Positions 17,608-51,554 of a DNA stretch of 64,000 nt are shown here, one piece after another; the first letter of the stretch is position 1, and each line of letters opens with the position of its first letter. The notes beneath the pieces are model-generated. The model saw only the letters and a program-made list of their open reading frames with translations, did not search any database and was not told the origin of the DNA. The stretch comes from Anaerocolumna cellulosilytica (GTDB taxonomy: Bacteria > Bacillota > Clostridia > Lachnospirales > Lachnospiraceae), in contig NZ_AP023367.1 in assembly GCF_014218335.1 (NCBI RefSeq), positions 2,915,501 to 2,979,500 of the forward strand, read 5' to 3'. Position numbers and translations under genes: made by a program.

Positions 17608-18219
17608 CTATTGTAAGATAAAAGATTCATAAACATTCTCAAAATAGTTATCTGATATACTATCTACATCAGAATAAATAATCATTTTGTCAGCTTTAAT
17701 TAAAAATGTTACTGCCAAAGACAATATTATACAGTCCTCAAAGCATTTATCTACAGAATTCCAATTCATATGTCCTATACAATCATTTTGTATTATGGGT
17801 ATGATTTGCATATGCAGCAAAAAATCAAGGGTTTTTAAAAGTTCTGCCTTTTTTTTTTCATTTTCAAAGTCTTTTATGTTTAATAATATTTGAGCAATCG
17901 TCTTATCATATTTACCAAAAGACTCAAAGTATAATTGTATAATTTTACATTGACCAATAGCACCGAAAAAACCTTGATTAATTAATTCATCTGATTTAAA
18001 TTCCATGTTAAGTTGATTTGCACCGCTTGCAATAGCTCCTGATGATACAATTATAATTTTATTTCCAGCATCCTGAATGTTTGATAACACTTTTATCAAC
18101 TGTTCAAAACGATTATATTTACAACCATTTTCATCAATTAGGCTTGTTATGTTGACCAATACAACAATTATATAATTGTCTAATACCATATTAACGTACA
18201 TTCCTTTCGCTTCGCTCAA
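17608..18219 (-). CDS. Truncated, degenerate glutamate 5-kinase-like amino acid kinase
   Basis: A 203-residue protein that resembles only the N-terminal two-thirds of ProB (about 260 residues plus an optional PUA domain). IIIVSSGAIASGANQL and GAIGQCKIIQLYFESFGKYD align well with ProB, and the ORF ends just after IIYSDVDSISD. Key sites are eroded: the nucleotide-binding VVKxGTS reads VVLVNIT, INEND reads IIQND, and GDND is gone. Catalysis is unlikely. Three in-frame starts are possible (TTG at 18219, ATG a few codons later); AAAGGA lies between them. It is the last gene on the cluster side and may be a decaying remnant or a non-catalytic protein. Confidence 0.55.
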   Translation of the reverse strand: MSEAKGMYVNMVLDNYIIVVLVNITSLIDENGCKYNRFEQLIKVLSNIQDAGNKIIIVSSGAIASGANQLNMEFKSDELINQGFFGAIGQCKIIQLYFESFGKYDKTIAQILLNIKDFENEKKKAELLKTLDFLLHMQIIPIIQNDCIGHMNWNSVDKCFEDCIILSLAVTFLIKADKMIIYSDVDSISDNYFENVYESFILQ

Positions 18220-18525
18220 AGCTCAAATCGTGATGAAAGAGAACAAGCGAATTTCTTCTTCACTTGATATAATTAACTAGAATAATATAAACATACTGCC
18301 GTATCTGTTGTGGTATCGACTTGCACAAAAAAATTATAATTACTGCCATTGCCATAACGTCTACTAAAAATTTTACTCCTCAAATAACAATAAACGTTTT
18401 GCCACTATTAATTCAGACTTATAAAATCTTAAGCATGCTATCTGTAAAGCAATACATCCTCTCTTGTAATACATTGACTCTGTATATGCCAATCACTTCT
18501 CAAAAAGTCTATAAAATCCATAAGG

Positions 18526-18680
18526 GATGAAGCCTTTACTTGTTCAGTGTGCAAATGACGCAAGCATGATTCCAAGAATCCATATCTTAAATTCAAGTAT
18601 GAGCATATCAAGAAACGCCATGGACACAAAATAGCTTAAAGCGATTGTACGAATGACGTTCACTGAATTTATCAAATAAT
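18526..18680 (+). pseudogene. Remnant of an IS110-family transposase C-terminus
   Basis: On the plus strand the reading MKPLLVQCANDAS, then after a frameshift SKNPYLKFKYEHIKKRHGHK, then after another break KAIVRM, reproduces in order the conserved C-terminal region of IS110/IS116/IS902 transposases. At least two frameshifts or stops interrupt it and no N-terminal DEDD domain is nearby. It lies in the 521-base gap between the kinase-like gene and the radical SAM-type gene, at the end of the biosynthetic cluster. It suggests past insertion-sequence activity at this boundary. Confidence 0.75.
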
Positions 18681-18740
18681 TTCTCTTTATACTAATAATA
18701 AGTTTCATGCAGCTGAATTTAATCTGAGTCGGTTAAGTTA

Positions 18741-19895
18741 CTATTTATTCTTACAATTAAATCTCATATTCTTATTAACTTTTTGATAAAATAATCTGCT
18801 AAATCTCAGTGCAGAATCAAAATTATTATAGTAGTCCCAATAAGCCCACTTGGGAAATGTATCTTCAGAATATAAACGACGATTTTCCGGTATATCAATT
18901 ATATTTGTATCCTTTATGTATACGAAATAATTCACCCTATGGTTTTCATCTTCTGCCTTAAGTAATTGTTTGTAATCCTTTCTTATCGTAGAGCCGCTGA
19001 CTCCCTCCTCATAAATACCAACATTTAAAATACACTTTGGAAATGCATGCAAAACCTTAATCATTGCATCTGTTGACATATTAGAATCAATTTCAACACT
19101 CATATCAATATCATAAAACTGACCTGTAAAGTCATAATTTTCTTCTGACATTATTAACATGCTTGCCTTTTCAAAATTGTTTTCAATCTTACCTAATAAA
19201 TGCATCAATGTATCATTCGACATCTTAACAGGAGGGCGATGATAAATATTATATAGCTCATTATGTTTAGATCCCATACAATTATTACAGCCCTGGTGCC
19301 TAGTCGTACAGCCTCCCTTTGAAGTAATTATCATTGGTAAGTTATATTGATCGTTGTATTCATATAATCTCAAATAGTTTTTGTCTTCCATATAGTAATC
19401 AGAAGTTCTGCTGACATACTTTAGATAAGAAGGAAACCAATCCAGATTAAATTCAAGATTTTTAAAATCATCTTCAGTAAACTTATACGTTACTGAATTA
19501 CGAAAAGTACGACTGACTAAATTAGGTATTTTTTTTATATGGACATCATTTAGTAAATAATCAATCGGTAACTCATTATCTCCCTGAATGTAGTAATCTA
19601 CATCTGAACGCTTAAAGATTTCTTCATATTTTAAAGCCGAATAAAGTCCCCCAAAAAGAATGCTTGCATTTTTATTCTTTTCTTTAATATAATCAACAAT
19701 TAGAAAAAATTCGTATAACTGAATAAACCAATTCAGTTCAACAATGAAAAAATCATATTCCTTAACGTATTCTTCATTAAGTTCAAAACTATATATTCCT
19801 TTTATCTTTTCCTTGTTTTTACTAAACAACCAACAAGATGGGGCTGAAAAAGAATAATTGTGCATTGTAATTGGGTAAACTACTAATGCTTTCAT
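18741..19895 (-). CDS. B12-binding/radical SAM-like protein with unusual cysteine spacing
   Basis: Protein of 384 residues. The first 130 resemble a cobalamin-binding Rossmann domain (LFGGLYSALKYEEIF, YYIQGDNELPIDYLL). The segment ITSKGGCTTRHQGCNNCMGS then occupies the place of the Fe-S loop of B12/radical SAM proteins, where a GCxxxCxxCGGS form is usual. Here the spacing is C196-x6-C203-x2-C206, so either a non-canonical cluster loop or an altered enzyme. The remainder (SMLIMSEENYDFTG and following) would be the barrel. It has AGGAGG nine bases before the ATG. It is the last apparently intact gene of the cluster. The reaction is unknown. Confidence 0.68.
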   Translation of the reverse strand: MKALVVYPITMHNYSFSAPSCWLFSKNKEKIKGIYSFELNEEYVKEYDFFIVELNWFIQLYEFFLIVDYIKEKNKNASILFGGLYSALKYEEIFKRSDVDYYIQGDNELPIDYLLNDVHIKKIPNLVSRTFRNSVTYKFTEDDFKNLEFNLDWFPSYLKYVSRTSDYYMEDKNYLRLYEYNDQYNLPMIITSKGGCTTRHQGCNNCMGSKHNELYNIYHRPPVKMSNDTLMHLLGKIENNFEKASMLIMSEENYDFTGQFYDIDMSVEIDSNMSTDAMIKVLHAFPKCILNVGIYEEGVSGSTIRKDYKQLLKAEDENHRVNYFVYIKDTNIIDIPENRRLYSEDTFPKWAYWDYYNNFDSALRFSRLFYQKVNKNMRFNCKNK

Positions 19896-19939: not shown

Positions 19940-21025
19940 TTATATAGCAGTTGCATATAATACAATGCTGTGAGCAACTGGTGTTTTTTGAGCTAAATAA
20001 ATTCTGTATTCAGGAACAATCGATTTGAGCCATAATGGAATCTGAATAATATCCTGATATTTATGATAAGCGCAAATTGCTAATTTAGGTTTAAATGTCT
20101 TAATCGTATTTATACCACCTTTTAAGGCTCTCAGCTCTGCACCTTCAATATCCATTTTAATAAAATCAACAGACTGCAACTTATTTTCCTCTACAAACGA
20201 ATCCATCGTGATGACTTCAATATACATTTCTCCCTCTGAAGTAATACATTTTGATGCATCTCCACTTTCAATAATCCCCAATTTAGTGCTTTCATCCCAC
20301 AGCCCTTTCTTCACTACTTGAATCGTAGTATCGAAACCATTGTTATAGATGTTATTTTCTAAGAACGACACATGTGATGGCATTATTTCGAACGAATATA
20401 CCTTTCCTGACTCGCCAACCTTTTTTGCAAACCAAATAGAAGTCTCACCTTTATATGCCCCAATATCTAAAACAATATCATTTTTTTGTGGTTCACATCT
20501 ATCTTCTAATAAATAGGTTTCACATATCCAGGTTTCAGAAATAAGATAGAGTTCTGTATTTAACAGATAATCTTCTATACAATACATTTCACCATTTTTT
20601 TTGATTTTTGATGCAGCAATTTTACCCAGCTCAATTCTGCTATGATTTGTAGGATAAGGATACATCCCTTCTACTATTGTAACACTTTGAATTATGGTTA
20701 ACGCTATTTTAAATTTTATATACCAGTCTAATACTAATTTTGATTCTTCATCTTCTAATCGTTCATATACAAGTATTAAATCTGAAACAAGAGACTCTTC
20801 TATATAGACTTCTCCAGTCTCTTTCCATTCCAAAAAAGATTTTGATATATTATCATAAAACAATTTGTCTTCTTCATAAAAAGGAATTATATCTGACAAT
20901 TGTTTTTTTATCTTTATCAAATCTGTTGATTGTTCTTTATCCAAACAATCCAAAAACACATTTTTGTATTGTTCACTAATCCGAGATCTGCACATTTTCC
21001 CCATCCTTTCAAGATAGTCAGCCAC
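19940..21025 (-). CDS. FkbM-family SAM-dependent methyltransferase
   Basis: Protein of 361 residues. The C-terminal half (from about 185) is an FkbM-type methyltransferase, with the SAM-binding motif DIVLDIGAYKGETSIWFAKKV, then VYSFEIMPSH and the family motif VDFIKMDIEGAELRALKGG. Such enzymes usually O-methylate small molecules or sugars. The N-terminal 180 residues are helical and unrecognised. The GTG at 21025 shares one base with the stop codon of the DUF362 gene (TAGTG), suggesting translational coupling; an ATG seven codons later (21004) follows GAAAGG and is an alternative. Likely a tailoring enzyme. Confidence 0.83.
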   Translation of the reverse strand: MADYLERMGKMCRSRISEQYKNVFLDCLDKEQSTDLIKIKKQLSDIIPFYEEDKLFYDNISKSFLEWKETGEVYIEESLVSDLILVYERLEDEESKLVLDWYIKFKIALTIIQSVTIVEGMYPYPTNHSRIELGKIAASKIKKNGEMYCIEDYLLNTELYLISETWICETYLLEDRCEPQKNDIVLDIGAYKGETSIWFAKKVGESGKVYSFEIMPSHVSFLENNIYNNGFDTTIQVVKKGLWDESTKLGIIESGDASKCITSEGEMYIEVITMDSFVEENKLQSVDFIKMDIEGAELRALKGGINTIKTFKPKLAICAYHKYQDIIQIPLWLKSIVPEYRIYLAQKTPVAHSIVLYATAI

Positions 21026-22137
21026 TATACATTTATTTTATGATTACTACTCAAATCCCAATAATGAAACTTCTCAATTTTTACTGCCTTTTCCGGACAT
21101 AATTCATGACAGCAATAACATTTTATACAAGACTCAAGTTGAATAGAAGGTTTTTTATTGATCATCTTAATTATTTGCGCAGGACAAACCTTGCTACATA
21201 TTCCACATCCTATACAAAGGGAATAATTAATAACTGGAACCGTATCTGTCTTATTGATTGTATCTGGAAGTATGAATGGCTTAATTTCCAAATCCTCGAA
21301 TGTTAAATCCATCATATCTATATCCTTAATGCTTCCAGTTATTAGTCCTCTTTTTATAGAGGATGAAATAGTAGGAACCTCAAAGGGATCAAATCCAACA
21401 ATTGTTGTTGCTGCCAAATCCACTATGTAAGGATTTTCAGATGCCATGACCAATCCCATATGTCTGACAATACCTGCTGAAGGACCATTCCCTTCCATAC
21501 AATCAATCGCATCAATAATTGATAGTGTAGGTTTTACATACTCGCAAATATCAACCAAATGTTCACCAAAAGTCCTTGCATCTTTCAACTTGTAATGGTA
21601 TTTCATCTTAATAATACCAGGAATCGTACCAAAAAGGTTTTTAACAGCACCTGTATACATCATCATCGCATGAGTCTTCAATTTAGCTGCGGATACTATT
21701 AAGTCAGCATCATATGCATACCTTGCCAAAGTCATTTTTTTCAAACATACGGATTCAACACTTTCCACATCAATAATGGATGTATCAAAATTTAAATTAC
21801 AACCTGTTTCATCAGCAACTTTTGACATTCCCGTTTCGTCATATACCGTTTTTAATATTTGTTTTGTAAAACCATGAGGAGCACCTGGGCTATCCGCGAT
21901 TGTAACTGCACAATGAAACGACTGAAAATATCTTACAATTGCCTTAACAACATTTGGATGTGTCGTTATTGCTTTCTCCGGTGTTTGATTGCTTACTAGA
22001 TTTGCTTTTACTACTACTTTCATCTCTTGTTTTATCTTTTGCTTTAATTCTGGTATTCTTTCCAAACAGTGAAAGATAGCATCTTCTACTCTCTGGTATT
22101 CATAGTTTTCGCATTTTGTTACGCATACTTTATGCAT
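21025..22137 (-). CDS. DUF362 protein with C-terminal two-[4Fe-4S] ferredoxin domain
   Basis: Protein of 370 residues. Residues 1 to about 290 are a DUF362 domain (VVVKANLVSNQTPEKAITTHP, DLIVSAAKLKTHAMMM, YTGAVKNLFGTIPG). The C-terminus has two cluster motifs, CIGCGICSKVCP and CIKCYCCHELCP, for two [4Fe-4S] clusters. DUF362-ferredoxin proteins are common in anaerobes but their reaction is not settled. Here it lies between EtfBA and a methyltransferase, so it may pass electrons between ferredoxin and the flavoprotein for a reductive tailoring step. That role is inferred from context only. Confidence 0.88.
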   Translation of the reverse strand: MHKVCVTKCENYEYQRVEDAIFHCLERIPELKQKIKQEMKVVVKANLVSNQTPEKAITTHPNVVKAIVRYFQSFHCAVTIADSPGAPHGFTKQILKTVYDETGMSKVADETGCNLNFDTSIIDVESVESVCLKKMTLARYAYDADLIVSAAKLKTHAMMMYTGAVKNLFGTIPGIIKMKYHYKLKDARTFGEHLVDICEYVKPTLSIIDAIDCMEGNGPSAGIVRHMGLVMASENPYIVDLAATTIVGFDPFEVPTISSSIKRGLITGSIKDIDMMDLTFEDLEIKPFILPDTINKTDTVPVINYSLCIGCGICSKVCPAQIIKMINKKPSIQLESCIKCYCCHELCPEKAVKIEKFHYWDLSSNHKINV

Positions 22138-22157: not shown

Positions 22158-24020
22158 TTATGTATCACTTATATTTATTTCTTTCATTAAAATGGGGATA
22201 AATTCTGCAGCATCAGCAACGATTCCATAATCAGCCGTTCCAAATATTGGGGCATGTCTATCCTTATTAATTGCTATTATTTTTTTCGAATTTGCCATAC
22301 CGACAATGTGCTGAATTGCTCCTGAAATCCCAATCGCTAGATACGTTTGTGGAACTACAGTTTTACCGGTTTGTCCAATCTGATGGTTATAATCTACCCA
22401 ACCTAAATCAACTAAAGCTCTCGTTGCACCAATTGCTCCACCCATTTTTTTTGCTAATTCTTCTACGAGGTGTATATTTTCAACAGTTCCAATCCCTTTT
22501 CCCATTGACACTATAATATTTGCTTGATTCAAATTAGTTTGTCTACCTTCTTCAAAAAAAGTCTTTAAGATTTTAGATTTAGTAAGATGTAGAATCTCAA
22601 CATTATTCATAATAATTTTTCCTGGCTTTATTTGCTTCTTAATGATATCTTTCATTACATTCGGCCTTACAGTTGCCATTTGGGGTCTTGCATGCGGACA
22701 AACAATCGTGGCTACTAAATTACCGCCAAATGCAGGTCTCGTTTGAAGAAGATATCTTTTTTCTCTATCAATATCCAATTTTGTACAATCTGCTGTTAAT
22801 CCAGTATTTAATGCAGACGCTACCCGTGAAGCTAAGGATTTGCCATACGTGGACGCCCCGAAAAGCATAATTTCTGGTTTGTATTTTTCTATTGTCTTTA
22901 TCAGTATATCAGCATATATTTCTTCATGTAAAACCTTTAATTTTATATTATCTGTCATATATACAATGTCTGCTCCATGCTCTGCTAAAAAAAGTGCATC
23001 TTTAGAAATATTCTCTCCTAAAAGGATTACGCTCAATGGAACACCAAGAGACTCTGCCAGCCTCTTTCCTGTACCTAAGAGTTCAATACTTACACTTGAC
23101 AAATACTTGTTTTCATACTCAACAAACAGGCATACTCCTCTATATTGTGAAGAAGAAGTATCATCATATATGTAACTGCGCGTATCCAGTGAAATAGTTT
23201 TATTAAAAGACTCTTTTTCCAGATTTTTTTTATCTGTGTCCTTGTTATCTTTCATTATATAATTTAATAGTCTTTTTGCTTGCTCTACATATGAACCTTC
23301 CAAAATATTACATTTATTTCGCATATCAGGCACGAACGTTTTAACTACTTTAGTCGGTGAACCTGTTAATCCACAAAAATTTTTGTTCACCTCAATTTTA
23401 TCTGCATTCCAAATATGCACGGGTATATTTTTTGCACGTAATTTATCCTTGATTCGTGGAATCCTAGGTTCGTTAATCCCTTTTACAACTGTAATTAATG
23501 CTGGCAAAGATGTCTCAATCATCTCATACCCAAAATCTGTAACCCGCTTACACCTTATTCTATTTGTCGATATATGTTCAATATCAAAAACACATGTGAT
23601 GTGCGGAATTGATAACTTTTGAGCAAGTTCAGGCCCAACTTGAGCGGTATCACCATCTATCGACTGCCTACCACAAATAATTAAATCAAATTTGCTAAGA
23701 TGTTCTATTCCTTTTGATAATACATAGGATGTAGCAAGCGTATCAGACCCAGCAAAGACTTTATCATTTAAGAGAACTGCATCATCTGCCCCCATGGCTA
23801 AAGCCTCTCTTAAAATTGATTCAGTAGATTTAACTCCCATACTTATAACCGTGACGCTCCCACCTATTTCTTCTTTTATTCTTAGACCAGCTTCAACTGC
23901 ATAAGCATCAAAAGGATTAAACTTTGATTTGTTTCCCTCTCTTATAATTGTATTTGTTTCTACATTAATTCTCATACTGGCAGATTCAGGCACAGCCTTA
24001 ACACAAACTATTATTTCCAG
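22158..24020 (-). CDS. Fused electron transfer flavoprotein, beta-alpha (EtfBA), CTG start
   Basis: Single chain of about 620 residues joining EtfB (about 1-250) to EtfA (about 285-620). The beta part shows NPFDAYAVEAGLRIKEE, ALAMGADDAVLL and GRQSIDGDTAQVGPELA. The alpha part ends with the FAD-binding segments GRQTNLNQANIIVSMGKGIG, GQTGKTVVPQTYLAIGISGA and DYGIVADAAEFIPIL. The first GTG (23993) would remove the strand 1 motif. Reading upstream gives EIIVCVKAVPESA, the normal EtfB N-terminus, beginning at CTG (24020) with AAGGAGG 8 bases before it and no ATG, GTG or TTG in frame. It should carry electrons to or from a partner dehydrogenase, perhaps the FAD oxidase or the DUF362 protein in this cluster. 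Confidence 0.9.
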   Translation of the reverse strand: MEIIVCVKAVPESASMRINVETNTIIREGNKSKFNPFDAYAVEAGLRIKEEIGGSVTVISMGVKSTESILREALAMGADDAVLLNDKVFAGSDTLATSYVLSKGIEHLSKFDLIICGRQSIDGDTAQVGPELAQKLSIPHITCVFDIEHISTNRIRCKRVTDFGYEMIETSLPALITVVKGINEPRIPRIKDKLRAKNIPVHIWNADKIEVNKNFCGLTGSPTKVVKTFVPDMRNKCNILEGSYVEQAKRLLNYIMKDNKDTDKKNLEKESFNKTISLDTRSYIYDDTSSSQYRGVCLFVEYENKYLSSVSIELLGTGKRLAESLGVPLSVILLGENISKDALFLAEHGADIVYMTDNIKLKVLHEEIYADILIKTIEKYKPEIMLFGASTYGKSLASRVASALNTGLTADCTKLDIDREKRYLLQTRPAFGGNLVATIVCPHARPQMATVRPNVMKDIIKKQIKPGKIIMNNVEILHLTKSKILKTFFEEGRQTNLNQANIIVSMGKGIGTVENIHLVEELAKKMGGAIGATRALVDLGWVDYNHQIGQTGKTVVPQTYLAIGISGAIQHIVGMANSKKIIAINKDRHAPIFGTADYGIVADAAEFIPILMKEINISDT

Positions 24021-24045: not shown

Positions 24046-25224
24046 CTACATACAGGCTGTACTAAGTATTATATCCACGCATTGTTCAGTCCCACCATAT
24101 TTACTTAGTGTTTGAGAAAGCTCTCTGCATCTAAATCTGTAGTCGCCGTTCATTACTTCCTCTATAACTGAATTTAGTCGAGTCGGACGAAAAGCATGCA
24201 CTGGTAATTTCTTTGATGCTCCCAGTTCTGCAAGCTTAGATGAGTTATAATCCCTCTCATAATGTTGTCCAGGAATTGTTATACTTGGCACACCATGCAA
24301 CAACGAAGTCAACATTGTATCCTGTCCTCCGTGAAAAATAATTAAGCTTGTATCTTTAATAATTGCTGGCACAGATACATATCTCTCAAATTTGACGTTA
24401 GGCAAATTAGTCGGTAAAGATTTGAGTTGGTAGTGGTAACCACAGCCACAAATCACTCTAAAAGGTTTATCCTTAAATGTTTCTGTTATGACCTCACTAT
24501 ACAATACAGGGGATAAAGCACTGACACTTAGGTATATAAATATCTGTGGTAGTTTCAGCCAATTATCATACCAATTAGGCAAAGTGGAGTTGTCATTTTC
24601 AATATCTAATATATATCCCACAAATTTAATAGCTTCAATGTTTTTCATTTCTGGCTCTAATTCCGGCAAAGTCGGTGCAAGTTTTACATCTGCTCTCATG
24701 TAAAACAATTCTGTTAAATTATTAATCTCTTTCTGATTGTATTTTACTAATTGATTGTTATAAGCACGAATACTCCGTCCTGATTCTTTACTATTAAGTG
24801 GATGTTCAGGATTACAAGGCCAACTAGCAATCATTACTGTAGGGATAGAGGCAATCCTTGCCGATATGCTTGCGGTAGGTCTAGCTTCTGCGAAAATGAC
24901 ATCCGGCTTAAAGTCTCGTATTGCAGCTAACTCTGCCTTTATAGACTGTTCTATATATTCCTCATCTGTCATACCAGTCCATTCAATGAAATCAACTAAA
25001 TTATTAATTGTCTGTTCCTTTCCTGTAGGGATAGGTGCCTGATATTCGTACACTTTAAATCCCTGTTTACGAATAAAGTCACCCAAACTCCCTCCCATAA
25101 CGAAGCAGACTTTACATCCCCGTTTCACCAGCGCCCTAGCAATTCCTATAGATTTTGTTACTGATCCGATAGAGCCTGAGTTGGGCGGACTTGGTAAAAT
25201 CATTATTCTTCTCTCTCTCTCCAT
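24046..25224 (-). CDS. MGT/UDP-type glycosyltransferase
   Basis: Protein of 392 residues with the GT-B fold of GT1-like enzymes that glycosylate natural products. The N-terminal half has PSPPNSGSIGSVTKSIGIAR for acceptor binding. The C-terminal nucleotide-sugar region has LIIFHGGQDTMLTSLLHGVP followed by IPGQHYERDYNSSKLAELG, matching the donor-binding motif in which HGG, the small-residue loop and the D/Q pair bind the sugar nucleotide. The start has AGGAG nine bases upstream. No deoxysugar genes are close except a degenerate epimerase and an aminotransferase, so the donor is unknown. Confidence 0.85.
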   Translation of the reverse strand: MERERRIMILPSPPNSGSIGSVTKSIGIARALVKRGCKVCFVMGGSLGDFIRKQGFKVYEYQAPIPTGKEQTINNLVDFIEWTGMTDEEYIEQSIKAELAAIRDFKPDVIFAEARPTASISARIASIPTVMIASWPCNPEHPLNSKESGRSIRAYNNQLVKYNQKEINNLTELFYMRADVKLAPTLPELEPEMKNIEAIKFVGYILDIENDNSTLPNWYDNWLKLPQIFIYLSVSALSPVLYSEVITETFKDKPFRVICGCGYHYQLKSLPTNLPNVKFERYVSVPAIIKDTSLIIFHGGQDTMLTSLLHGVPSITIPGQHYERDYNSSKLAELGASKKLPVHAFRPTRLNSVIEEVMNGDYRFRCRELSQTLSKYGGTEQCVDIILSTACM

Positions 25225-27469: not shown

Positions 27470-27520
27470 GTTTATCACCTTTTCTTTTTATATGTACTCA
27501 ATTTCATATAGTAGAAATAT

Positions 27521-28690: not shown

Positions 28691-28752
28691 GTAATCACTC
28701 CTGTACAATTATGAACTCTGGCATCTATAAAATTATAATTAAATAAAATCAA

Positions 28753-29016: not shown

Positions 29017-29107
29017 ATTTACCACATATAATCCATTTATCCTTTTGTATAGGGTGATTGAATTATATTTTCCCTTTCTTTTTTTTATAAATAAAACTTA
29101 TATACAC

Positions 29108-41326: not shown

Positions 41327-41351
41327 ATGCCTTCTCGTATAGTCCAATTAT

Positions 41352-42494: not shown

Positions 42495-42545
42495 TATATT
42501 ACATTCACCTCCTCTCCTACAATAACAGTGGATACAGTCGTACAC

Positions 42546-44171
42546 TTATAATATCTTAATCCCCTTTCTCATCAATTTTAGTCTTGAACTCATCCACTGC
42601 TGCTCCAACCTTACCTGATTATCGCTAAGCAGAGTATCCCACTCTTTTACTATGTTATCGCCGATATGGCTCAAAGTATCGTTTTCGGCAGCATCAATTA
42701 ACGTATTAAAGGTTTCATAAAGTCTTTTTCCTACTGCATCTGCCATTTCATGGTATCTAGTTTTATATTCACGCATCTCATCTGATATTTTTTCAAACTC
42801 CTCATACATGTCCTTCCATACTTCATATAATCTTAATTCATATGCTAATTTATCGCATGTGTTCTCAAATCGCCTTACACTATCAAGACCATTTATCTTA
42901 TTTATTAAAGCACTTAATTTTTCGATTCTGCCATCTTGGAACATATATGTATATTCGAAATCACTTTCATCCACACCTGTTATTAAACCATCCAGTGCAA
43001 TCCTTTGAAATATCTTAGTATCCGGAAAGACATAAAGTGAATGAAGCCAACTTAGTGGACGGTAAGCTACTCCAACTTTTACCAGAAAATCCGCGTTATG
43101 CCTCAAATCCTTAAATGTTACATAAGGATGAAACATGATTATTAAACCACATACGTCCACACCATTTTTAGAAAATACATCAAAAGCATTTAAATTATTT
43201 TCAACGGATGCACGTTTTCCAAATGAAATCAGAGAATTATCAGAACCACTTTCAAAACCCGGAGAAACGCTGAAAAGTCCGAGCTTTTTCATTCTCTTAA
43301 TTAATGCTGCATCTTTCGCATCCCATGACTCTGCTCTGGTCAAAAAGGAAAATGCAATTTTAATACCACTTTTCTCGATTAAATCCATCAACTCAATGAT
43401 ACGTTTTTTCCCCCTTGGATCTGGGTCTTCAAAACTACTGTCGACAAATTCCACTACAACCCGTTTATCAGGAAATGATTGTTGTAATTTAATCAGTTCT
43501 TCCAATATATTTTTTGGTGTTCGCCCCCTCCATCTGGAGTATTTTACCGCTTTACTTACCCGATGAGATACACAAAAATCACAATTTCCCAGACACCCTC
43601 TGGACGTTGAGACTGAAGTAAAGATATTTGGTGAATTACTGTTATTCAAAGTTCTAATAATATCTTCTGCTGGTAAAGGAAGAGAATCTAAATCATCAAT
43701 CTGATCCCTTGGAGAATTTCGTTTTATGTACCCATCTTTTCTATAATAAATACTTCTACAATCATCAAGTGACTTCCCAGCCTCTAGTCGTTGACATATA
43801 TCAATATATGTCAGCTCACTTTCTCCATATGTAATAATATCTATATTCTTTTGTTCTTTTAATATCTTGGCAGCATACAGTGTAGCAGTATGTCCACCCG
43901 AAATAACAACTATTTCAGGATTTTCCTTTTTTATCCTATCAGCAAGTTCATATACAACCTTTTTATTTTCAGGATATAGAGTCATTGCAACAATGTCAGC
44001 ATTAAATGACATAACCGCTTTATAAACTTCTTCAACAGTCTGTCCTTCAAACACATTAACAAATACATTATGCCCGGCCTTTCTTAATGATGCTGCAATA
44101 TACTGGATTCCCAAATTAATTCTCTGAAATAATGAACTATACGATCTCCACTCAAATATTACAATATTCAT
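42546..44171 (-). CDS. Cobalamin-binding radical SAM enzyme, duplicate A
   Basis: Protein of 541 residues and paralogue of 39692-41326. The N-terminal cobalamin domain has VVISGGHTATLYAAKIL. The radical SAM cluster cysteines are C193, C197 and C200 (STSRGCLGNCDFC), followed by SRWRGRTPKNILEELI as in the duplicate. The C-terminal 150 residues are charged helical sequence. Gene order is ligase 1 - this enzyme - methyltransferase - duplicate B - ligase 2, so the ligase/radical SAM unit is present twice. Its substrate may be a carrier-bound residue activated by ligase 1. Confidence 0.88.
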   Translation of the reverse strand: MNIVIFEWRSYSSLFQRINLGIQYIAASLRKAGHNVFVNVFEGQTVEEVYKAVMSFNADIVAMTLYPENKKVVYELADRIKKENPEIVVISGGHTATLYAAKILKEQKNIDIITYGESELTYIDICQRLEAGKSLDDCRSIYYRKDGYIKRNSPRDQIDDLDSLPLPAEDIIRTLNNSNSPNIFTSVSTSRGCLGNCDFCVSHRVSKAVKYSRWRGRTPKNILEELIKLQQSFPDKRVVVEFVDSSFEDPDPRGKKRIIELMDLIEKSGIKIAFSFLTRAESWDAKDAALIKRMKKLGLFSVSPGFESGSDNSLISFGKRASVENNLNAFDVFSKNGVDVCGLIIMFHPYVTFKDLRHNADFLVKVGVAYRPLSWLHSLYVFPDTKIFQRIALDGLITGVDESDFEYTYMFQDGRIEKLSALINKINGLDSVRRFENTCDKLAYELRLYEVWKDMYEEFEKISDEMREYKTRYHEMADAVGKRLYETFNTLIDAAENDTLSHIGDNIVKEWDTLLSDNQVRLEQQWMSSRLKLMRKGIKIL

Positions 44172-44197: not shown

Positions 44198-45655
44198 TTA
44201 ATTTACCCTGCGTATTTTTCCATAACGACTTTTGGGAAGACTCTCGACAATTTCGATTTTGCTTGGTATCTTATGTGGAAGAAGCATTGTTTTACAATAT
44301 TTAACGATATCGTCAATTTTAACTTCTGCCCCTGGCTTTAAGACTATCTTAGCCAAGATACGCTCTCCATAAATTTCATCTTTTTCTCCCAACATTACAG
44401 CTTCATATACTCCAGGATAAGATGTTAGTACAGTCTCCACCTCCTGAGGATTAACAAGGTGCCCGGCAATATTAACTGTGTTAGATAGACGACCTGTTAT
44501 ATAAAGGTATCCATCCTCGTCTAAATAACCTAAGTCACCGGTATGAATCCATCCATCTTTATAAACTTTTTCTTCTAACTCAGGACGGCAAAAATACCCT
44601 TTTGATTTATGGGTGCCCGAGACAAGGATTTCTCCTTCTTGCAAGTTATCTGTATTATTTCCTTCTTTATCAACTATACGTATTGAAACTCCTTTAAGTG
44701 GAATACCTACTGATTCACTTAACTTGTTTAAATCATCATAGGGATTAAAGGTGCAGTAAAATGCTTCAGAAGAACAAAATATCGACCTTATTGGAATATT
44801 AGTGAGTTCATAAAAATTACTAAACGTTTTCTTATCCAAGTATGCAGAAGTTGAAACACACAATCTTAAGTGTTCTAGTTTAGTATTTCTCACCTGCATA
44901 GCCTCAACCAACAATTTATAAAAATACGGAACACAAAATAATACTGTGGTTTTGGTCTCATTTAAGGCTTTTATCGTACGACTTGGTAGTGGTTCATTTA
45001 ATAATACAAGTGTTGAACCAGCTGATAGTGCTGGTAAGATAGCAGTAAAAATAACGGACGGAAGAGATGGTGACATTGGTGTCAATAATACATCCTTTTC
45101 AGTCAAATGAAACGCCTCAATCAACGACTCTAGAATTGCAACTGTTGCATCATTATCATACATAACACACTTAGGAGCACCTGAAGTACCCGAAGTGTAT
45201 GCGTAAAAAGCACTGTTTGGGATTGAATCTATTATTTCTTCTGAAACGATTGCTGCAATAATCCAATCTGGATGCAACTCATATTTATGCATGTTTGCTT
45301 CACTTAAAAGCTCAGCATGCTTTTTGTTCTCACTACATAGCCAATGCGGTTTTCCTGCCTCCAAAGCCCGTTCTAATTCAGCGTTATTGGAAGATGGTTC
45401 TAAAGGAATTGGAACTGCACCGATTTTCCAAAGTGATAACCAAAGTGCAATAAAATCATATTTATGATCCGTACTAATTATAAACCGCTCTCCTTTTTTT
45501 ACACCAATTGATAAGAGAAAATCAGTCCATTTGTTTATTCTACTATTTAAATCTTTATAAGTTATTTTCTCACTTGAAATTACAATTGCAGTTTTGTCAG
45601 GAAATTTTTTAATCTTTTCTTCAAATAAATTATACACATTATTAAAAGTATCCAT
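44198..45655 (-). CDS. AMP-forming acyl/aminoacyl ligase 1
   Basis: ANL-superfamily enzyme of 485 residues. It has the phosphate loop YAYTSGTSGAPK, the hinge region HTGDLGYLDEDGYLYITGR and the catalytic lysine in PKSRYGKIRR at the end. It is homologous in layout to ligase 2 and likely activates a related acid for carrier loading. GAGGAGG lies before the ATG. It is the first gene after a 547-base gap, so it may start its own transcript; a palindromic site lies 193 bases upstream. Confidence 0.9.
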   Translation of the reverse strand: MDTFNNVYNLFEEKIKKFPDKTAIVISSEKITYKDLNSRINKWTDFLLSIGVKKGERFIISTDHKYDFIALWLSLWKIGAVPIPLEPSSNNAELERALEAGKPHWLCSENKKHAELLSEANMHKYELHPDWIIAAIVSEEIIDSIPNSAFYAYTSGTSGAPKCVMYDNDATVAILESLIEAFHLTEKDVLLTPMSPSLPSVIFTAILPALSAGSTLVLLNEPLPSRTIKALNETKTTVLFCVPYFYKLLVEAMQVRNTKLEHLRLCVSTSAYLDKKTFSNFYELTNIPIRSIFCSSEAFYCTFNPYDDLNKLSESVGIPLKGVSIRIVDKEGNNTDNLQEGEILVSGTHKSKGYFCRPELEEKVYKDGWIHTGDLGYLDEDGYLYITGRLSNTVNIAGHLVNPQEVETVLTSYPGVYEAVMLGEKDEIYGERILAKIVLKPGAEVKIDDIVKYCKTMLLPHKIPSKIEIVESLPKSRYGKIRRVN

Positions 45656-46156: not shown

Positions 46157-46192
46157 TATAGTTTTCAATTCCCAACGGAATTGAAAACTATA
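46157..46192. terminator. Perfect 16-base-pair hairpin after the ABC-2 permease
   Basis: TATAGTTTTCAATTCC and GGAATTGAAAACTATA flank CAAC. It starts 11 bases after the second permease gene ends. The U tract is poor, so it may act as a terminator, or a processing and stability element. Confidence 0.6.
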
Positions 46193-46202
46193 ATAGTAAA
46201 AA

Positions 46203-47006: not shown

Positions 47007-47007
47007 T

Positions 47008-47799
47008 CTAACCTCCAATTGATGAATAGTGTTTTATTCCTCTACTCCAAACAAAGCGATTTACTATAATAACTATAATTATCCATATTAATTGAATTAT
47101 TAAACCGTAATTAATCTGTTCCGCACTGAGTTTGCCTTGAATCAATTCAATTGGAAAACCTAACATATATCTAAAAGGTGTAAACACAGAAATATGTCTA
47201 ATAATACCTGGTAAAAGTATGGTAGGTATAATCTGTCCTGCTAGAATATGAACTAGTATATCATTAACACTCAGAAATGAATTAATTTTACTCGTAATTA
47301 AACCTAGCAGGGCTAACGTGTAGCCAAACATAAAACGAAGTACCTGTGCCAAAATCAGGCTTACAATAAATAATAAGAAGTTCGTAATAGTCAATGATAA
47401 GCGAAAGCCAAACAAAAATACAATAATTACAATAAATATTACAATGAATGGAGCACAGGCTATTTTCAGCGCAATATCTGCTGCAATAGGTTCATAAATT
47501 ACTGGTAACGGTCTCAATAACCATGTTGAGAATGTTCCATTAAAAATATTATCCCCTACTGTCCAATGAGAAATTGGATACGTTAATTGGTTTACAAAAA
47601 TCAAAATAGTATAATAGGAAATAAAGTCACTTTGTTCAAAACCTGAAACAGAACCTTGACCAGCAATTACAACCCATACAAACATATAAATTAGTGGAGT
47701 CATCATCCATCCCAAAGCTAACGTCCAGTAGAATCCTCTTGAGGCAATATAGCTAAAAAATGATTTTTTAATTAAAGCAATTCCACCTCTTAAATTCAT
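47008..47799 (-). CDS. ABC-2 type permease, first subunit
   Basis: Membrane protein of 263 residues with six hydrophobic segments. IFNGTFSTWLLRPLPVIYEP is the conserved cytosolic loop after the second helix pair, as in DUF990-like ABC-2 permeases. It overlaps the ATPase stop by four bases (ATGA), a sign of translational coupling, and the second permease follows at once. These pairs usually export amphipathic natural products or lipids. Confidence 0.87.
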   Translation of the reverse strand: MNLRGGIALIKKSFFSYIASRGFYWTLALGWMMTPLIYMFVWVVIAGQGSVSGFEQSDFISYYTILIFVNQLTYPISHWTVGDNIFNGTFSTWLLRPLPVIYEPIAADIALKIACAPFIVIFIVIIVFLFGFRLSLTITNFLLFIVSLILAQVLRFMFGYTLALLGLITSKINSFLSVNDILVHILAGQIIPTILLPGIIRHISVFTPFRYMLGFPIELIQGKLSAEQINYGLIIQLIWIIIVIIVNRFVWSRGIKHYSSIGG

Positions 47800-48797
47800 A
47801 CATTCACCCCATTACTATAAACTAAATCAATTAAAGATTCAATTTCAGGGTCTTCAATTGTCAAATCATTAACAATAAAATTGCTAAGAATCGTATATGA
47901 GGTTTGTGATATGTCATCTTTTCGAGCTCTTATCAAAAAGGTCTGTTCATTCTGATTAACCAGCGTTAAATCACCTTTTACATGTTTCTTTATATCCTCA
48001 AATCTAATATTTGCATCGGAAAATACTACTTTTATTAATTTAAAAGGTAATAATTTATCCCCTAAATGCTGCAAATCTCCATCATACATTAATTCACCCT
48101 TATTAATTAATATGACTCTTGAGCATAGTGAGGTAATATCACTCATGTAGTGGCTGGTTAACAAAAAGGTTGTATTGTATCGTTTATTGTATTCCTTTAT
48201 AAAGCTGCGGAGGCGAAGTTGAATGGAAACATCCATTCCTAATGTAGGTTCATCTAAAAACACAATATCCGGACAATAAAGCAACGCCATTACGAATTCA
48301 CATTTTGCTCTTTCTCCCAGTGAGAGATTTCTTGAGAGTTTAGGCAGCAATTCTTCAATAGATAAAAGATCTACCAACTCACCCAATCTTCTTTTATAAT
48401 CCTCATCTGATATTTGATAAATCTCTTTTGTCACATAAAATGAATCCATAACTGTAATACTAGGGTTCATCTGGGATTTATTTCCCATAATCATACTAAT
48501 TTTTTTTAAATACTCTCTTTTTCTTTCATATGGTTTGTATCCTGCTACAGTAATGTTTCCGCTTGTAGGATAGAGCAGACCCGAAAGCATTTTCAATGTT
48601 GTTGTTTTGCCCGCGCCGTTTGGCCCAATAAAACCAACCATTTCCTCTTTCTGTATATCAAAACTAATATTATTAACTGCGCTCACCTCAGTATAAACAG
48701 GATGTATTAAACTCTTAAATGAAGATAATAGACCCTGACCCCTAACAGGAATTTTATATATTTTCCCCAAGTCTCTTACTGATATTTCTGATTGCAT
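47796..48797 (-). CDS. ABC-2 exporter ATPase
   Basis: ATPase of 333 residues with Walker A GPNGAGKTT, signature LSLGERAK (serine-rich variant), Walker B VFLDEPTLGMD and switch histidine LTSHYMSD. A C-terminal extension of about 90 residues follows, as in drug-exporter ATPases. It is transcribed with two DUF990-type permeases. The assembly would export the cluster product or a precursor, complementing the UvrA-like self-resistance. Confidence 0.92.
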   Translation of the reverse strand: MQSEISVRDLGKIYKIPVRGQGLLSSFKSLIHPVYTEVSAVNNISFDIQKEEMVGFIGPNGAGKTTTLKMLSGLLYPTSGNITVAGYKPYERKREYLKKISMIMGNKSQMNPSITVMDSFYVTKEIYQISDEDYKRRLGELVDLLSIEELLPKLSRNLSLGERAKCEFVMALLYCPDIVFLDEPTLGMDVSIQLRLRSFIKEYNKRYNTTFLLTSHYMSDITSLCSRVILINKGELMYDGDLQHLGDKLLPFKLIKVVFSDANIRFEDIKKHVKGDLTLVNQNEQTFLIRARKDDISQTSYTILSNFIVNDLTIEDPEIESLIDLVYSNGVNV

Positions 48798-49925
48798 TTA
48801 ATGTCCTCCATTTTTAATATTTTCAAGAGTATCTTGTAATACTGTAACAATATAATCTTGTTGTTCCACTGTTAAATCTTGATATATAGGCAAACATATA
48901 TGCCTGCTACATACATCATCTGCATTGGAAAAATCACCTTCAAAGCCTAATTGTACTGCAATTGGTTGACGATGCAACGGGACTCCATAGACTTCACCTT
49001 GCAGATTTACTCCTTTTTCCTTCATTTTTTGTTTCAGTAAATCTCGCTCTATACCTTTAGGTAATAATATTATATATTTATACCAATTACTATTACACAT
49101 TGGATTTATAAGTGTTAATTCGGAATTCGACTTTAGCATGTCCGTATATCGCTTAGCTATTGCTTCTCTTTCCTGTAAAATATTACCCAGTCGTTTTAAT
49201 TGAGAATACGCCATAATCGATGTAATCTCACTCATCCTATAATTAGCTCCCACTTGTGTATGGTATGTTTCCCATGGTTTTGGTTTTCCATGATTGCGAT
49301 ATAATCTCATCTTCTCTGTAAGTTCTTCACTATTTGTTACAATCGAACCACCTTCTCCGCTTGTAATAACCTTTGTTGCAAATAAAGAGTATTCACCTGC
49401 TATACCAAAACTACCTGCATGTTTACCATTTAAAGTACTGCCAAGGGCATGGGCTGCATCTTCAAATAACCAAATTCCTTCCTGTTTACACCACGCAGCA
49501 ATCTTATCTATTTCAGGAGTTATTATTCCACCTATATGAACGATAATTACTCCGGTTGTCTTTTTCGTAACTCGTTTTTTCAGTTCTTCTAAACTAACTG
49601 AGAATGTTTTAGGATCTGTATCTACTAACCTGACAACTCCTCCTGCAAGCAGGACACCCATCGCGGTTGCTAAAAATGTATTAGTCGGCACAAGAACTTC
49701 TTTACCTTCAACACCTAGTGTTCTCATCATAACCTCTATTGCACTACTACCTGAATTAACTGCAACTGCATGTTTGACTTTTACAAAACTGGCTAATTCT
49801 TCTTCAAATCTTAAAACCTTTGTTCCCTGACTAAGTTGTCCTGTCGTTAAACATTCCTCTATCTCCCTTAAAATAAAGCTTTTCTCTTCATCCTCAAACT
49901 TAATTTTCAATGAAGGTATATTCAT
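48798..49925 (-). CDS. DegT/DnrJ/EryC1-family PLP aminotransferase
   Basis: PLP enzyme of about 375 residues of the sugar aminotransferase group. The phosphate- and PLP-binding region has AVNSGSSAIEVMMRTLG and LFEDAAHALGSTLNGK. The PLP lysine lies in LFATKVITSGEGGSIV, normal for the group. It may aminate a keto-sugar or an acyclic keto intermediate. The ATG at 49925 has AGGGGG six bases before it, better than the ATG two codons earlier. It is the third gene of the upper operon. Confidence 0.9.
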   Translation of the reverse strand: MNIPSLKIKFEDEEKSFILREIEECLTTGQLSQGTKVLRFEEELASFVKVKHAVAVNSGSSAIEVMMRTLGVEGKEVLVPTNTFLATAMGVLLAGGVVRLVDTDPKTFSVSLEELKKRVTKKTTGVIIVHIGGIITPEIDKIAAWCKQEGIWLFEDAAHALGSTLNGKHAGSFGIAGEYSLFATKVITSGEGGSIVTNSEELTEKMRLYRNHGKPKPWETYHTQVGANYRMSEITSIMAYSQLKRLGNILQEREAIAKRYTDMLKSNSELTLINPMCNSNWYKYIILLPKGIERDLLKQKMKEKGVNLQGEVYGVPLHRQPIAVQLGFEGDFSNADDVCSRHICLPIYQDLTVEQQDYIVTVLQDTLENIKNGGH

Positions 49926-49973
49926 ATACATCCCCCTTTTTCAGATATAATATTTTATCTCCTGAACCCCTTC

Positions 49974-50843
49974 TCACCAATCATATATAAGTGCTTTCCC
50001 CATAAACTTATTCTCTATAATTGATTGATGTATCTCACCAACACACTCTGCATGAACGTGGAGAGCAATTAAATCTTTTACATACAACTCTCTACTTTGT
50101 AGTAACTGTATTGCTGTTGTTTGTACATCTCGATTAATTATTCCATAACTATTTCCCTCAAACGAATGTACCCATTGAACCATATTACAATAATCTGATG
50201 TTAAATTAATAACATTGTGATACTGATTGAAAAATGTTTCATCAATTTCTTTTTCGTATATAACTTTACTTGCACCATATTCCTTCAAGTATTTAACGTC
50301 CAAATCTTCTCCTGTTAACAAAACTGTTGAATCAGTATTTTCCAGATTTAACAATTTTAATATTATGGCACCCAATATATTGCAACCTATCAAAAGAATA
50401 GGTTTTGATTTTATTATCCTGTAATCTTCACATAACTCCAACGCTTTACATATTAGCGGAAGAAAAATTGCGTCTACAGGATCGATATCATCAGGTAAAA
50501 TTGAATAAAACCTACCCTCTGTTTTTAATGCACCTATATTGTCTATAATTGAGAATTTTTTAAATAATGGAGATAAAAGTATTCTACTTCCTATATCTAT
50601 AGAGAAGTTCTGTTCTCCTATATCTTCCACAACAGCAATACTTGAATATGCATAGTGCTTTGGTATTATATTAAAAAGACTCATTTTATTATTCATGGAT
50701 AAATTGAATAATATTGTCCCCATTAGCGTGAACATATTTCTTAATAAAACTTTATTTTGGTTTATTAAAAATTTATTTACTTCTGTTTTATAATTAGGAA
50801 TATTATTGTTTACTATAAGTGATATATTCTCTCGAGTTTTCAT
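49974..50843 (-). CDS. Divergent MDR/alcohol-dehydrogenase-like protein
   Basis: Protein of 289 residues with the general layout of medium-chain dehydrogenases. A GroES-like first half holds HYAYSSIAVVEDIGEQ and IGSRILLSPL, and a Rossmann-like region holds SKPILLIGCNILGAIIL followed by GASKVIYEK. The zinc-binding residues of alcohol dehydrogenases are missing and the C-terminal part is short, so it is not a standard zinc enzyme. It lies between the unknown 230-residue gene and the aminotransferase gene. AAGGTG precedes the ATG. Confidence 0.65.
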   Translation of the reverse strand: MKTRENISLIVNNNIPNYKTEVNKFLINQNKVLLRNMFTLMGTILFNLSMNNKMSLFNIIPKHYAYSSIAVVEDIGEQNFSIDIGSRILLSPLFKKFSIIDNIGALKTEGRFYSILPDDIDPVDAIFLPLICKALELCEDYRIIKSKPILLIGCNILGAIILKLLNLENTDSTVLLTGEDLDVKYLKEYGASKVIYEKEIDETFFNQYHNVINLTSDYCNMVQWVHSFEGNSYGIINRDVQTTAIQLLQSRELYVKDLIALHVHAECVGEIHQSIIENKFMGKALIYDW

Positions 50844-50861
50844 TTCATCACCTTTAATATA

Positions 50862-51554
50862 TTAAATATGATCCGGTATAAACACATAACGCCCACCAAC
50901 AAATGGAGAATGAAACTGTGGTAACCACCCATGTACTGTAAACCTTTTTTTCGAATCAAAGCCTGCTACTAGCATAGCATTCCTTTCATATCTTCCATTT
51001 ATAATCCAAATCTTATGTTTTGTGTCGGGAGTATCCCCAGTGAGATATCTCATTCTTGCCAAAAATACTAAGTATCGTTCTAAACTCATACCAAGTTTTC
51101 CTTCATTTTGATATACACGTTGAATTTCACGACCTTGGCTACCTAAATGTTCAGGCACAAAAGATTTTTTTGTCTTAAACCAGAAATCTTCTGATTCTGT
51201 AGTCTTACCAATCAACTCATCATCGAATGCCCAACAATCTAAATTGAATAATTGACCTAATTGTTTTTTGGTAATTCCCTTTGGAACACATAAAATAATT
51301 TCATTGTTATCATACGCCTCTTTAATTTCTTCTTTTGTGAAATAAGGCAATTTAAGGTTGAATTTTGCTTCAATTACATTTTCAATTCCTAAAGTCCGAT
51401 ACCAATTTTCCATCTCATAACAAACATACTCTGGATTCGTTACGTCCTCATTTTCATTCCTGAAGCGAATTAAGTCACTACTTGTTATGATTTTATCCTC
51501 AATCATTGCTTGAATGGTATCTATAGTATTCTTCCTTATATTATTTAGGGACAT
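50862..51554 (-). CDS. Unrecognised 230-residue protein, second copy of a cluster-specific pair
   Basis: I do not recognise this family. It is homologous over its full length to 26777-27469: NPEYVCYEMENWYRTLGIE, ILCVPKGIT, LDCWAFDD, TTESEDFWFKT, RYLVFLARMRYLTGDTPDT, GRYERNAMLVAGFD and VHGWLPQFHSPFVGGRYVF align block by block. The pair stands at both ends of the cluster's main gene set, this one at the start of the upper operon. GGTGGAG lies six bases before the ATG at 51554; the GTG four codons earlier is not needed. Confidence 0.85.
   Translation of the reverse strand: MSLNNIRKNTIDTIQAMIEDKIITSSDLIRFRNENEDVTNPEYVCYEMENWYRTLGIENVIEAKFNLKLPYFTKEEIKEAYDNNEIILCVPKGITKKQLGQLFNLDCWAFDDELIGKTTESEDFWFKTKKSFVPEHLGSQGREIQRVYQNEGKLGMSLERYLVFLARMRYLTGDTPDTKHKIWIINGRYERNAMLVAGFDSKKRFTVHGWLPQFHSPFVGGRYVFIPDHI

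What the first reader, a model, noticed from the sequence alone, without database searches (positions are those of the whole stretch)
17608..51554. Large biosynthetic cluster without PKS or NRPS modules, apparently undescribed
About 28 minus-strand genes in a row combine free-standing carriers, two stand-alone ligases, four B12/radical SAM-type proteins, tandem transglutaminase-like proteins, a U32 Fe-S protein, EtfBA, DUF362, a DAO oxidase, an aminotransferase, a glycosyltransferase, two methyltransferases, a UvrA2 and an ABC-2 exporter. I know no pathway with this set. The closest idea is the closthioamide type of thiotemplated assembly, where single carriers and cysteine-protease-like enzymes act without modules. 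The product is unknown.
Basis: partly seen in the sequence, partly recalled or inferred. Interest (0 to 1): 0.88.

Follow-up and report, generated by a model that had tools for sequence, protein, structure and literature searches.

The report
Unknown carrier-based antibiotic-like gene cluster
A block of 27 neighbouring bacterial genes, also found in much the same order in other Bacillota, probably builds and exports an unknown and possibly DNA-damaging small molecule on small stand-alone carrier proteins, without the usual giant assembly-line enzymes.

Summary
Twenty-seven minus-strand genes (18741-51566) form one biosynthetic block with three stand-alone carriers, two stand-alone ligases, and no NRPS or PKS gene among them. 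It is one evolutionary unit: in Acetivibrio mesophilus 26 of 27 genes have reciprocal best hits, 21 of them collinear; an unnamed Bacillota genome (G119) has 18 of 27; Lacrimispora algidixylanolytica has nine convincing ones. These nine are EtfBA, two 234-aa proteins (A, B), ligase, SDR, two carriers, a transglutaminase-like protein and a DAO flavoenzyme. The four congeners examined share gene order up to 17066 and not beyond, so the block looks acquired; the ProB fragment at 17608-18219 is not part of it. "Without NRPS" holds here only: A. mesophilus and G119 add one NRPS protein each. The 234-aa pair has no credible Pfam, NCBIfam or PDB match. Transglutaminase homology is suggestive, not proven. 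I infer a glycosylated, carrier-assembled amide, dehydrogenated without O2 by DAO plus EtfBA, exported, and perhaps DNA-reactive, because a short UvrA is conserved in three of four clusters. The product is unknown. It works like closthioamide assembly but is not a member: AANH and ATP-grasp are absent.

The parts
50862..51566 (-). 234-aa protein, subfamily A of a family new to the libraries searched; first gene of the block
   Evidence: No credible match in Pfam, NCBIfam, PDB sequences or PDB folds; orthologue in 3 of 3 relative clusters
49974..50843 (-). 289-aa protein, by eye a degenerate MDR-type dehydrogenase
   Evidence: No Pfam match; orthologues in A. mesophilus (35%) and G119 (26%), none shown in L. 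algidixylanolytica
48798..49931 (-). DegT/DnrJ/EryC1 sugar-type aminotransferase
   Evidence: Pfam 2e-98, best solved relatives are sugar/cyclitol aminotransferases; 61% and 57% in two relatives
47796..48797 (-). ABC exporter ATPase (DrrA-like, below that model's cut-off)
47008..47799 (-). ABC-2 permease
   Evidence: PF06182
46203..47018 (-). ABC-2 permease
   Evidence: PF06182
45656..46202 (-). 547-bp gap with a 17-bp hairpin just after the exporter gene; possible leader of the second half
   Evidence: overall fold z only -1.75
44198..45655 (-). stand-alone AMP-forming ligase, no FDxS amino-acid motif
   Evidence: Pfam 8e-53; alignment
42546..44171 (-). B12-binding radical SAM protein
   Evidence: both Pfam domains over cut-off
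41484..42545 (-). SAM methyltransferase
   Evidence: Pfam
39692..41347 (-). B12-binding radical SAM protein, paralogue of 42546 (39%)
38201..39655 (-). stand-alone AMP-forming ligase, no FDxS motif
   Evidence: Pfam 8e-49
37278..38180 (-). NAD-dependent epimerase/dehydratase (SDR)
   Evidence: Pfam; in 3 of 3 relatives
36052..37203 (-). U32-family protein with conserved Cys sets
   Evidence: Pfam 2e-12; Cys conserved in a four-sequence alignment
35757..36029 (-). third carrier (Ser retained in LVSIQILN)
   Evidence: weak NCBIfam carrier matches
33906..35690 (-). transglutaminase-like protein II (Cys and His retained)
33621..33884 (-). carrier
   Evidence: PP-binding; homologue in all 3 relatives
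31814..33595 (-). transglutaminase-like protein I (Cys274 invariant, His position is Asp)
   Evidence: 3 of 3 relatives
29244..31811 (-). UvrA lacking about 100 residues before the aligned core (UvrA2-like length); probable self-protection
28753..29025 (-). carrier
   Evidence: PP-binding; 3 of 3 relatives
27521..28708 (-). DAO flavoenzyme, sarcosine oxidase beta/ThiO-like
   Evidence: Pfam 2e-63; soxB is the best NCBIfam match, below its cut-off
26777..27478 (-). 233-aa protein, subfamily B of the 234-aa family
   Evidence: 45% to 50862; A/B split predates the four clusters
25268..26689 (-). radical SAM protein, B12 domain below cut-off
   Evidence: 74% and 62% orthologues
24046..25224 (-). 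macrolide-type glycosyltransferase
22158..23993 (-). fused electron transfer flavoprotein (EtfBA)
   Evidence: Pfam 6e-82 and 5e-33; 3 of 3 relatives, as two genes in G119 and L. algidixylanolytica
21025..22137 (-). DUF362 protein with ferredoxin domain
   Evidence: Pfam 4e-51; the only cluster gene without an A. mesophilus counterpart
19940..21025 (-). FkbM methyltransferase
18741..19895 (-). divergent radical SAM/B12-like protein with CX6CX2C; last gene
   Evidence: weak NCBIfam match; 78% orthologue
51843..52604 (-). tandem MerR-type regulator just upstream; possible but unproven part
   Evidence: 35% counterpart about 6.5 kb before the A. mesophilus cluster

Best explanation
A single, horizontally acquired natural-product cluster that assembles its product on free-standing carriers. 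The two ligases load carboxylic acids onto carriers. The transglutaminase-like proteins join an acyl group to an amine, either on another carrier or on an amino sugar. The DAO enzyme dehydrogenates the amine part and passes electrons to EtfBA instead of O2, with the 234A/234B pair acting at this stage. B12/radical SAM, methyltransferase, U32 and SDR enzymes decorate the scaffold. The aminotransferase and glycosyltransferase add a sugar, the ABC exporter secretes the product, and the short UvrA protects the producer's DNA. Shown here: gene content, unity, rarity in the samples searched, acquired position, and a 234-aa family without a match in the libraries. Inferred: every reaction, the DNA-reactive product, and the direction of electron flow.
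For: Unity: 26 of 27 genes in A. mesophilus, 21 collinear, 0 of 200,000 shuffles; G119 18 of 27, 16 collinear, 0 of 200,000. Nine-gene core in all four clusters, with DAO next to 234B in all four. Ser is invariant in the 12 carriers aligned; 6 of 6 ligases aligned lack the FDxS amino-acid motif. Acquisition: gene order of 4 congeners examined (of 14) matches up to 17066 and then ends; transglutaminase-like I is missing from the other 97 of 98 relatives (69 of the 98 were at least 90% complete and at most 5% contaminated); GC is 0.335 in the block against 0.369 left and 0.368 right. DAO resembles the sarcosine oxidase group; ETF as acceptor is established for sarcosine dehydrogenase (recalled). 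UvrA: conserved in window, A. mesophilus and G119 (61% and 50%); tilimycin's island carries a UvrA2-like self-resistance protein, UvrX (PMC9613472, passages). Transglutaminase: Cys-helix profile match P 3.7e-4, better than all 13 comparison runs against the same profile; one relative protein hits PF01841 at E 0.0042, under cut-off.
Against: No product, expression or enzyme data. Transglutaminase-like proteins do not reach Pfam's cut-off, their model is unusable (pLDDT 40), the C-terminal profile test was weak (P 0.036), and protein I has Asp where His is expected in 4 of 4. No gene here clearly activates an alpha-amino acid, so the amine partner is a guess. No UvrA orthologue was found in the 40-kb L. 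algidixylanolytica region, so DNA damage is not part of the shared core. The UvrA scores best against ordinary UvrA models and structures. One of four congeners examined (G006) has another short UvrA-like gene, 41% identical, a few kb past the same flank without any other cluster gene, so a short UvrA does not by itself mark such a cluster. U32 hydroxylase and B12 methylation roles rest on family knowledge only. The genome has NRPS elsewhere, which could contribute in trans.
Confidence: 0.6

Rival explanations
1. The cluster belongs to the NRPS world: the core makes a tailored building block that an NRPS extends and, in A. mesophilus, releases as an aldehyde. The window copy has lost its NRPS or borrows one encoded elsewhere.
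For: NRPS proteins sit inside the A. mesophilus and G119 clusters. G000 has 19 condensation-domain matches, none of them in the cluster.
Against: None of the 35 matches of the A. mesophilus NRPS in G000 reaches its reductase part (all end by residue 1097 of 1491); the long matches are generic, 28-37% identical. None of the 10 L. algidixylanolytica ORFs scanned has a condensation domain. The window copy is otherwise almost complete.
Confidence: 0.2
2. The product is not DNA-reactive: the UvrA homologue has another role (for example general stress) and the molecule is a metallophore, signal or other antibiotic.
For: UvrA is missing from the nine-gene core; best matches are ordinary UvrA models; a short UvrA-like gene also occurs outside such a cluster in congener G006.
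Against: UvrA lies within the block in three clusters and lacks the stretch before the aligned core; the tilimycin precedent.
Confidence: 0.42
3. The block makes a redox cofactor or modifies a cell component rather than a secreted natural product.
For: EtfBA and DUF362-ferredoxin are redox proteins and U32 proteins often bind Fe-S clusters.
Against: Rare in the samples searched, dedicated exporter, glycosyltransferase and UvrA, and variable decorations between clusters.
Confidence: 0.07

Closest known systems
Closthioamide (cta) pathway, Ruminiclostridium cellulolyticum
   Same: Anaerobic Bacillota; NRPS-independent, thiotemplated; free-standing carriers; stand-alone ligase; transglutaminase assigned to amide formation (PMC6772006, passages)
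   Different: None of AANH thioamide synthetase, ATP-grasp, decarboxylase or a CtaA-like chorismate enzyme among the 27 proteins; adds ETF/DAO, 234-aa pair, B12/radical SAM, U32, glycosyltransferase, UvrA
Andrimid (adm) transglutaminase AdmF
   Same: Transglutaminase homologue as condensation catalyst (Fortin 2007, title seen in a reference list; rest recalled)
   Different: Andrimid is a PKS/NRPS hybrid (recalled); no sequence comparison with AdmF was made
Tilimycin/pyrrolobenzodiazepine clusters
   Same: UvrA2-like self-resistance protein in the island (PMC9613472, passages); the A. mesophilus NRPS ends in a thioester-reductase-type domain
   Different: No anthranilate or propyl-proline genes were looked for; window copy has no NRPS
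Sarcosine/dimethylglycine dehydrogenase with ETF (recalled)
   Same: SoxB-like DAO flavoenzyme encoded with an ETF
   Different: Here encoded in a biosynthetic cluster beside carriers; the pairing is inferred from neighbourhood

Membership tests
NRPS-independent thiotemplated (closthioamide-type) pathway | Free-standing carriers with the phosphopantetheine Ser | tested here: met
   Three carriers in the window; Ser invariant in the 12 sequences aligned
NRPS-independent thiotemplated (closthioamide-type) pathway | Stand-alone ligase loading a carrier | tested here: inconclusive
   Two AMP-forming ligases present; loading not testable
NRPS-independent thiotemplated (closthioamide-type) pathway | Transglutaminase or cysteine-protease-like amide synthase | tested here: inconclusive
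   Cys-helix profile match P 3.7e-4; Pfam only below cut-off, in relatives
Closthioamide family proper | AANH thioamide synthetase (CtaC) | tested here: not met
   No such match among the 27 proteins
Closthioamide family proper | ATP-grasp loading enzyme (CtaD) | tested here: not met
   No ATP-grasp match among the 27 proteins
NRPS or PKS cluster | Condensation or ketosynthase domains | tested here: not met
   None among the 27; condensation domains present in two relatives
Genotoxin cluster with UvrA2-type self-resistance | UvrA paralogue without the UvrB-binding part | tested here: inconclusive
   855 aa, alignment to UvrA starts about 100 residues late; aligns to 2vf7 (UvrA2) over 177-848, but scores better against ordinary UvrA; the domain itself was not modelled
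Genotoxin cluster with UvrA2-type self-resistance | DNA-reactive product | not testable with these tools
   No product known
U32 O2-independent hydroxylases (UbiU/UbiV, RlhA, TrhP) | U32 domain with a four-Cys Fe-S motif | tested here: inconclusive
   U32 over cut-off; conserved Cys sets, but CX3C instead of CX6C (motif from PMC6747719, passages)

The most novel reading that the evidence does not exclude
The nine-gene core defines an unrecognised class of oxygen-independent, carrier-tethered pathway. An ETF-coupled DAO dehydrogenase and a new heterodimeric enzyme family (234A/234B) turn an amide-linked amine into a DNA-reactive imine warhead, which each lineage then extends by transglutaminases, an NRPS, carbamoyl or sugar transfer.
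Probability: 0.22. Interest if true: 0.82.

Novelty: new variant of a known kind. Interest (0 to 1): 0.63.

Why it matters
It would add a second, differently equipped system beside closthioamide to the thiotemplated pathways that work without modules, and searches keyed to NRPS or PKS modules would tend to miss it. The paired 234-aa proteins, one A and one B in each of the four clusters, have no credible match in the libraries searched, so their chemistry is open. The nine-gene core gives a genome-mining handle, and the named species A. mesophilus offers a cultured host in which to look for the product. If the UvrA is self-protection, the product is a DNA-acting compound from strict anaerobes.

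Tried and rejected
Transglutaminase fold by AlphaFold: model at pLDDT 40, so no fold search was made. 234-aa fold: model at pLDDT 71; Foldseek against the PDB gave nothing at E <= 0.001; the second aligner was not available. Relatives of the 234-aa family in viral contigs, and of two cluster proteins in plasmids: none. I first took L. algidixylanolytica gene 23248 as a homologue of 49974 by eye; a profile search does not support it (E 0.2), so it was dropped from the core and the order test rerun (8 of 9 collinear, reached by 95 of 200,000 shuffles; with it the test had given 9 of 10, reached by 10). An orthologue of the A. mesophilus NRPS elsewhere in G000: not found. ProB fragment as part of the cluster: rejected, no counterpart in A. 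mesophilus. Celluxanthene cluster reported for A. mesophilus: a PKS pathway, different (passages). AHBA/mitomycin idea for the aminotransferase: the best solved relatives are sugar or cyclitol aminotransferases, with AHBA synthase lower in the list. Amino-acid codes of the two relatives' NRPS A domains (G119 Ser-like, A. mesophilus Cys-like) were read by hand against recalled codes and carry no weight.


Full report
What is there. The window lies in a complete 5.43-Mb genome. Between 18741 and 51566 there are 27 minus-strand ORFs, 23 of 26 gaps being under 100 bp. Seven of 27 have no usable Pfam match. There is no condensation or ketosynthase domain among the 27.

It is one unit. A scan of genome contigs with the 234-aa pair returned two loci, in Acetivibrio mesophilus and Lacrimispora algidixylanolytica (strict peptide patterns, so a lower bound). 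A phylum sample with the transglutaminase-like pair added G119, and two proteins, in G469 and G286, that match only at the C-terminal end. With extended stretches (mechanical longest-ORF picks, so starts may be too far upstream), reciprocal best hits cover 26 of 27 cluster genes in A. mesophilus (27 of 31 genes compared, the extra one being the MerR regulator) and 17 in G119. The G119 carrier homologous to 33621 was missed by my ORF picker and found by tblastn and translation, which makes 18. L. algidixylanolytica has 14 of 31, of which nine are convincing core genes; the other five (25268, 36052, 41484, 47796, 53033 at 22-29% identity) may be family-level matches only. Longest collinear runs: A. 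mesophilus 21 of 26 and G119 16 of 18 (15 of 17 using BLAST hits alone), each reached by 0 of 200,000 shuffles; L. algidixylanolytica 8 of 9, reached by 95 of 200,000.

Core and decorations. The nine genes in all four clusters are EtfBA, 234A, ligase, SDR, carrier 33621, transglutaminase-like I, carrier 28753, DAO and 234B. DAO and 234B are neighbours in all four; EtfBA and 234A are neighbours in G119 and L. algidixylanolytica only. Window, A. mesophilus and G119 share in addition the aminotransferase, exporter, 49974, glycosyltransferase, U32, UvrA and radical SAM 25268. A. mesophilus adds a C-A-T-reductase NRPS and a NusG-like gene at the start. G119 adds an NRPS with C and A domains (T domain read by eye), a carbamoyltransferase, a second glycosyltransferase, another carrier and a phosphopantetheinyl transferase. 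L. algidixylanolytica adds two proteins with BtrH-like matches under cut-off, two more ligases that keep the amino-acid motif, two more carriers and a radical SAM protein with a weak B12 domain.

It is rare in the samples and looks acquired. Homologues of transglutaminase-like I were found in 1 of 98 relatives, the window's own genome (69 of 98 of good quality), and full-length in 2 of 398 phylum genomes, own and G119. The 234-aa family was found in 1 of 397 family genomes (own), 1 of 295 genomes of G119's family (G119 itself) and 2 of 391 class genomes (own and G1232, which by coordinates is probably A. mesophilus again). Four congeners, of 14 in the genus sample, share the gene order of 12040-17066 (11551-17066 in three of them) and then no cluster gene follows in the 14-15 kb seen, with one exception: G006 has a short UvrA-like gene in two or more pieces, 41% identical to 29244, a few kb further on (weak ABC-ATPase matches in G010 aside). 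GC is 0.335 in the block, 0.369 to the left and 0.368 to the right (per 2 kb).

The 234-aa pair. Subfamilies A and B each contain one protein per cluster. A-to-A identity from the window is 64, 54 and 48%, and B-to-B is 69, 56 and 47%, while A-to-B within a genome is 45, 46, 40 and 34%, so the split is older than the four clusters. Residues invariant in the eight sequences include Cys93, His212 and Asp204 of 50862. Pfam, NCBIfam, PDB-sequence and PDB-fold searches gave no credible relative. The fold model is only moderate (pLDDT 70.9, pTM 0.67, five sequences).

Transglutaminase-like proteins. Single sequences from the window do not match Pfam's transglutaminase model, and that family's own search of the genome does not ring on them. 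A C-terminal relative in G469 matches weakly (E 0.0042), as does A. mesophilus protein II (E 0.028), both under cut-off; G286 and three other relatives do not. A profile of the central region aligns its invariant Cys helix to the Cys helix of seven transglutaminase-core matches of the same genome with P 3.7e-4. The 13 comparison runs against that profile (three unrelated families, five column shuffles of each region) were worse, the closest being one shuffle of the same region at P 3.8e-3; the C-terminal region itself gave only 0.036. Protein II keeps a His after the Cys (2 of 2), while protein I has Asp there in 4 of 4.

Mechanism. Inferred from families: ligases load carboxylic acids, and the six aligned lack the FDxS amino-acid motif that the extra L. 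algidixylanolytica ligases keep. Transglutaminase-like enzymes make amides, as proposed for CtaJ and reported for AdmF (title, rest recalled). The DAO resembles the sarcosine oxidase group, whose dehydrogenase members use ETF (recalled), which suits an anaerobe. U32 relatives take part in O2-independent or prephenate-dependent hydroxylation, and UbiU and UbiV bind Fe-S clusters (PMC6599085 and PMC6747719, passages); the cluster's U32 protein has conserved cysteines at a different spacing. The UvrA lacks about 100 residues before the aligned core and aligns with D. radiodurans UvrA2, although ordinary UvrA structures score higher. UvrX of the tilimycin island is UvrA2-like by model and protects against that DNA alkylator (PMC9613472, passages). 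Hence the proposal of a DNA-reactive product, at about 45%; the short UvrA-like gene outside a cluster in G006 counts against it.

Known or new. Closthioamide (PMC6772006, passages) shares carriers, ligase and transglutaminase, but its AANH and ATP-grasp proteins are absent here, so this is not a member. No paper describing this cluster was seen in the listings (several capped), and the one paper naming A. mesophilus that I opened concerns a PKS pathway (PMC12144888, passages). The library holds open-access papers only and MIBiG was not available, so 'undescribed' is provisional. I rate it a new variant of a known kind.

Noticed in passing
17275-17372: c-di-GMP-I riboswitch on the minus strand, upstream of the gene 15537-17066, which reads by eye as a PAS-GGDEF protein: probable feedback control of a c-di-GMP enzyme.
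   Followed up: no
17608-18219: 203-aa fragment matching the first half of glutamate 5-kinase ProB, ending early, at the edge of the acquired block.
   Followed up: partly
45656-46202: 547-bp gap inside the cluster with a 17-bp hairpin and no T run right after the exporter gene; may be an attenuator or antiterminator site.
   Followed up: partly
18741-19895: Radical SAM-like protein with CX6CX2C in place of the usual CX3CX2C, kept in the 78% identical A. mesophilus orthologue.
   Followed up: partly
4200-5718: Two adjacent genes that read as signal peptidase I paralogues (by eye).
   Followed up: no
L024:8962-10062 and L025:9122-10456: Two proteins from high-GC (0.70 and 0.69) stretches of the same phylum carry only the C-terminal domain of the transglutaminase-like proteins; none of the five neighbours scanned matched a carrier or other biosynthetic family.
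   Followed up: partly
L033:8854-11213: Congener G006 has a short UvrA-like gene in pieces, 41% identical to 29244, a few kb past the shared flank and beside an AraC-like gene, with no other cluster gene.
   Followed up: partly
G000:C1 4.48-4.56 Mb and 2.03-2.08 Mb: Large NRPS regions elsewhere in the same genome.
   Followed up: no
L015:10924-11466: NusG-like (possibly LoaP-type) gene at the start of the A. mesophilus cluster, suggesting antitermination control.
   Followed up: no
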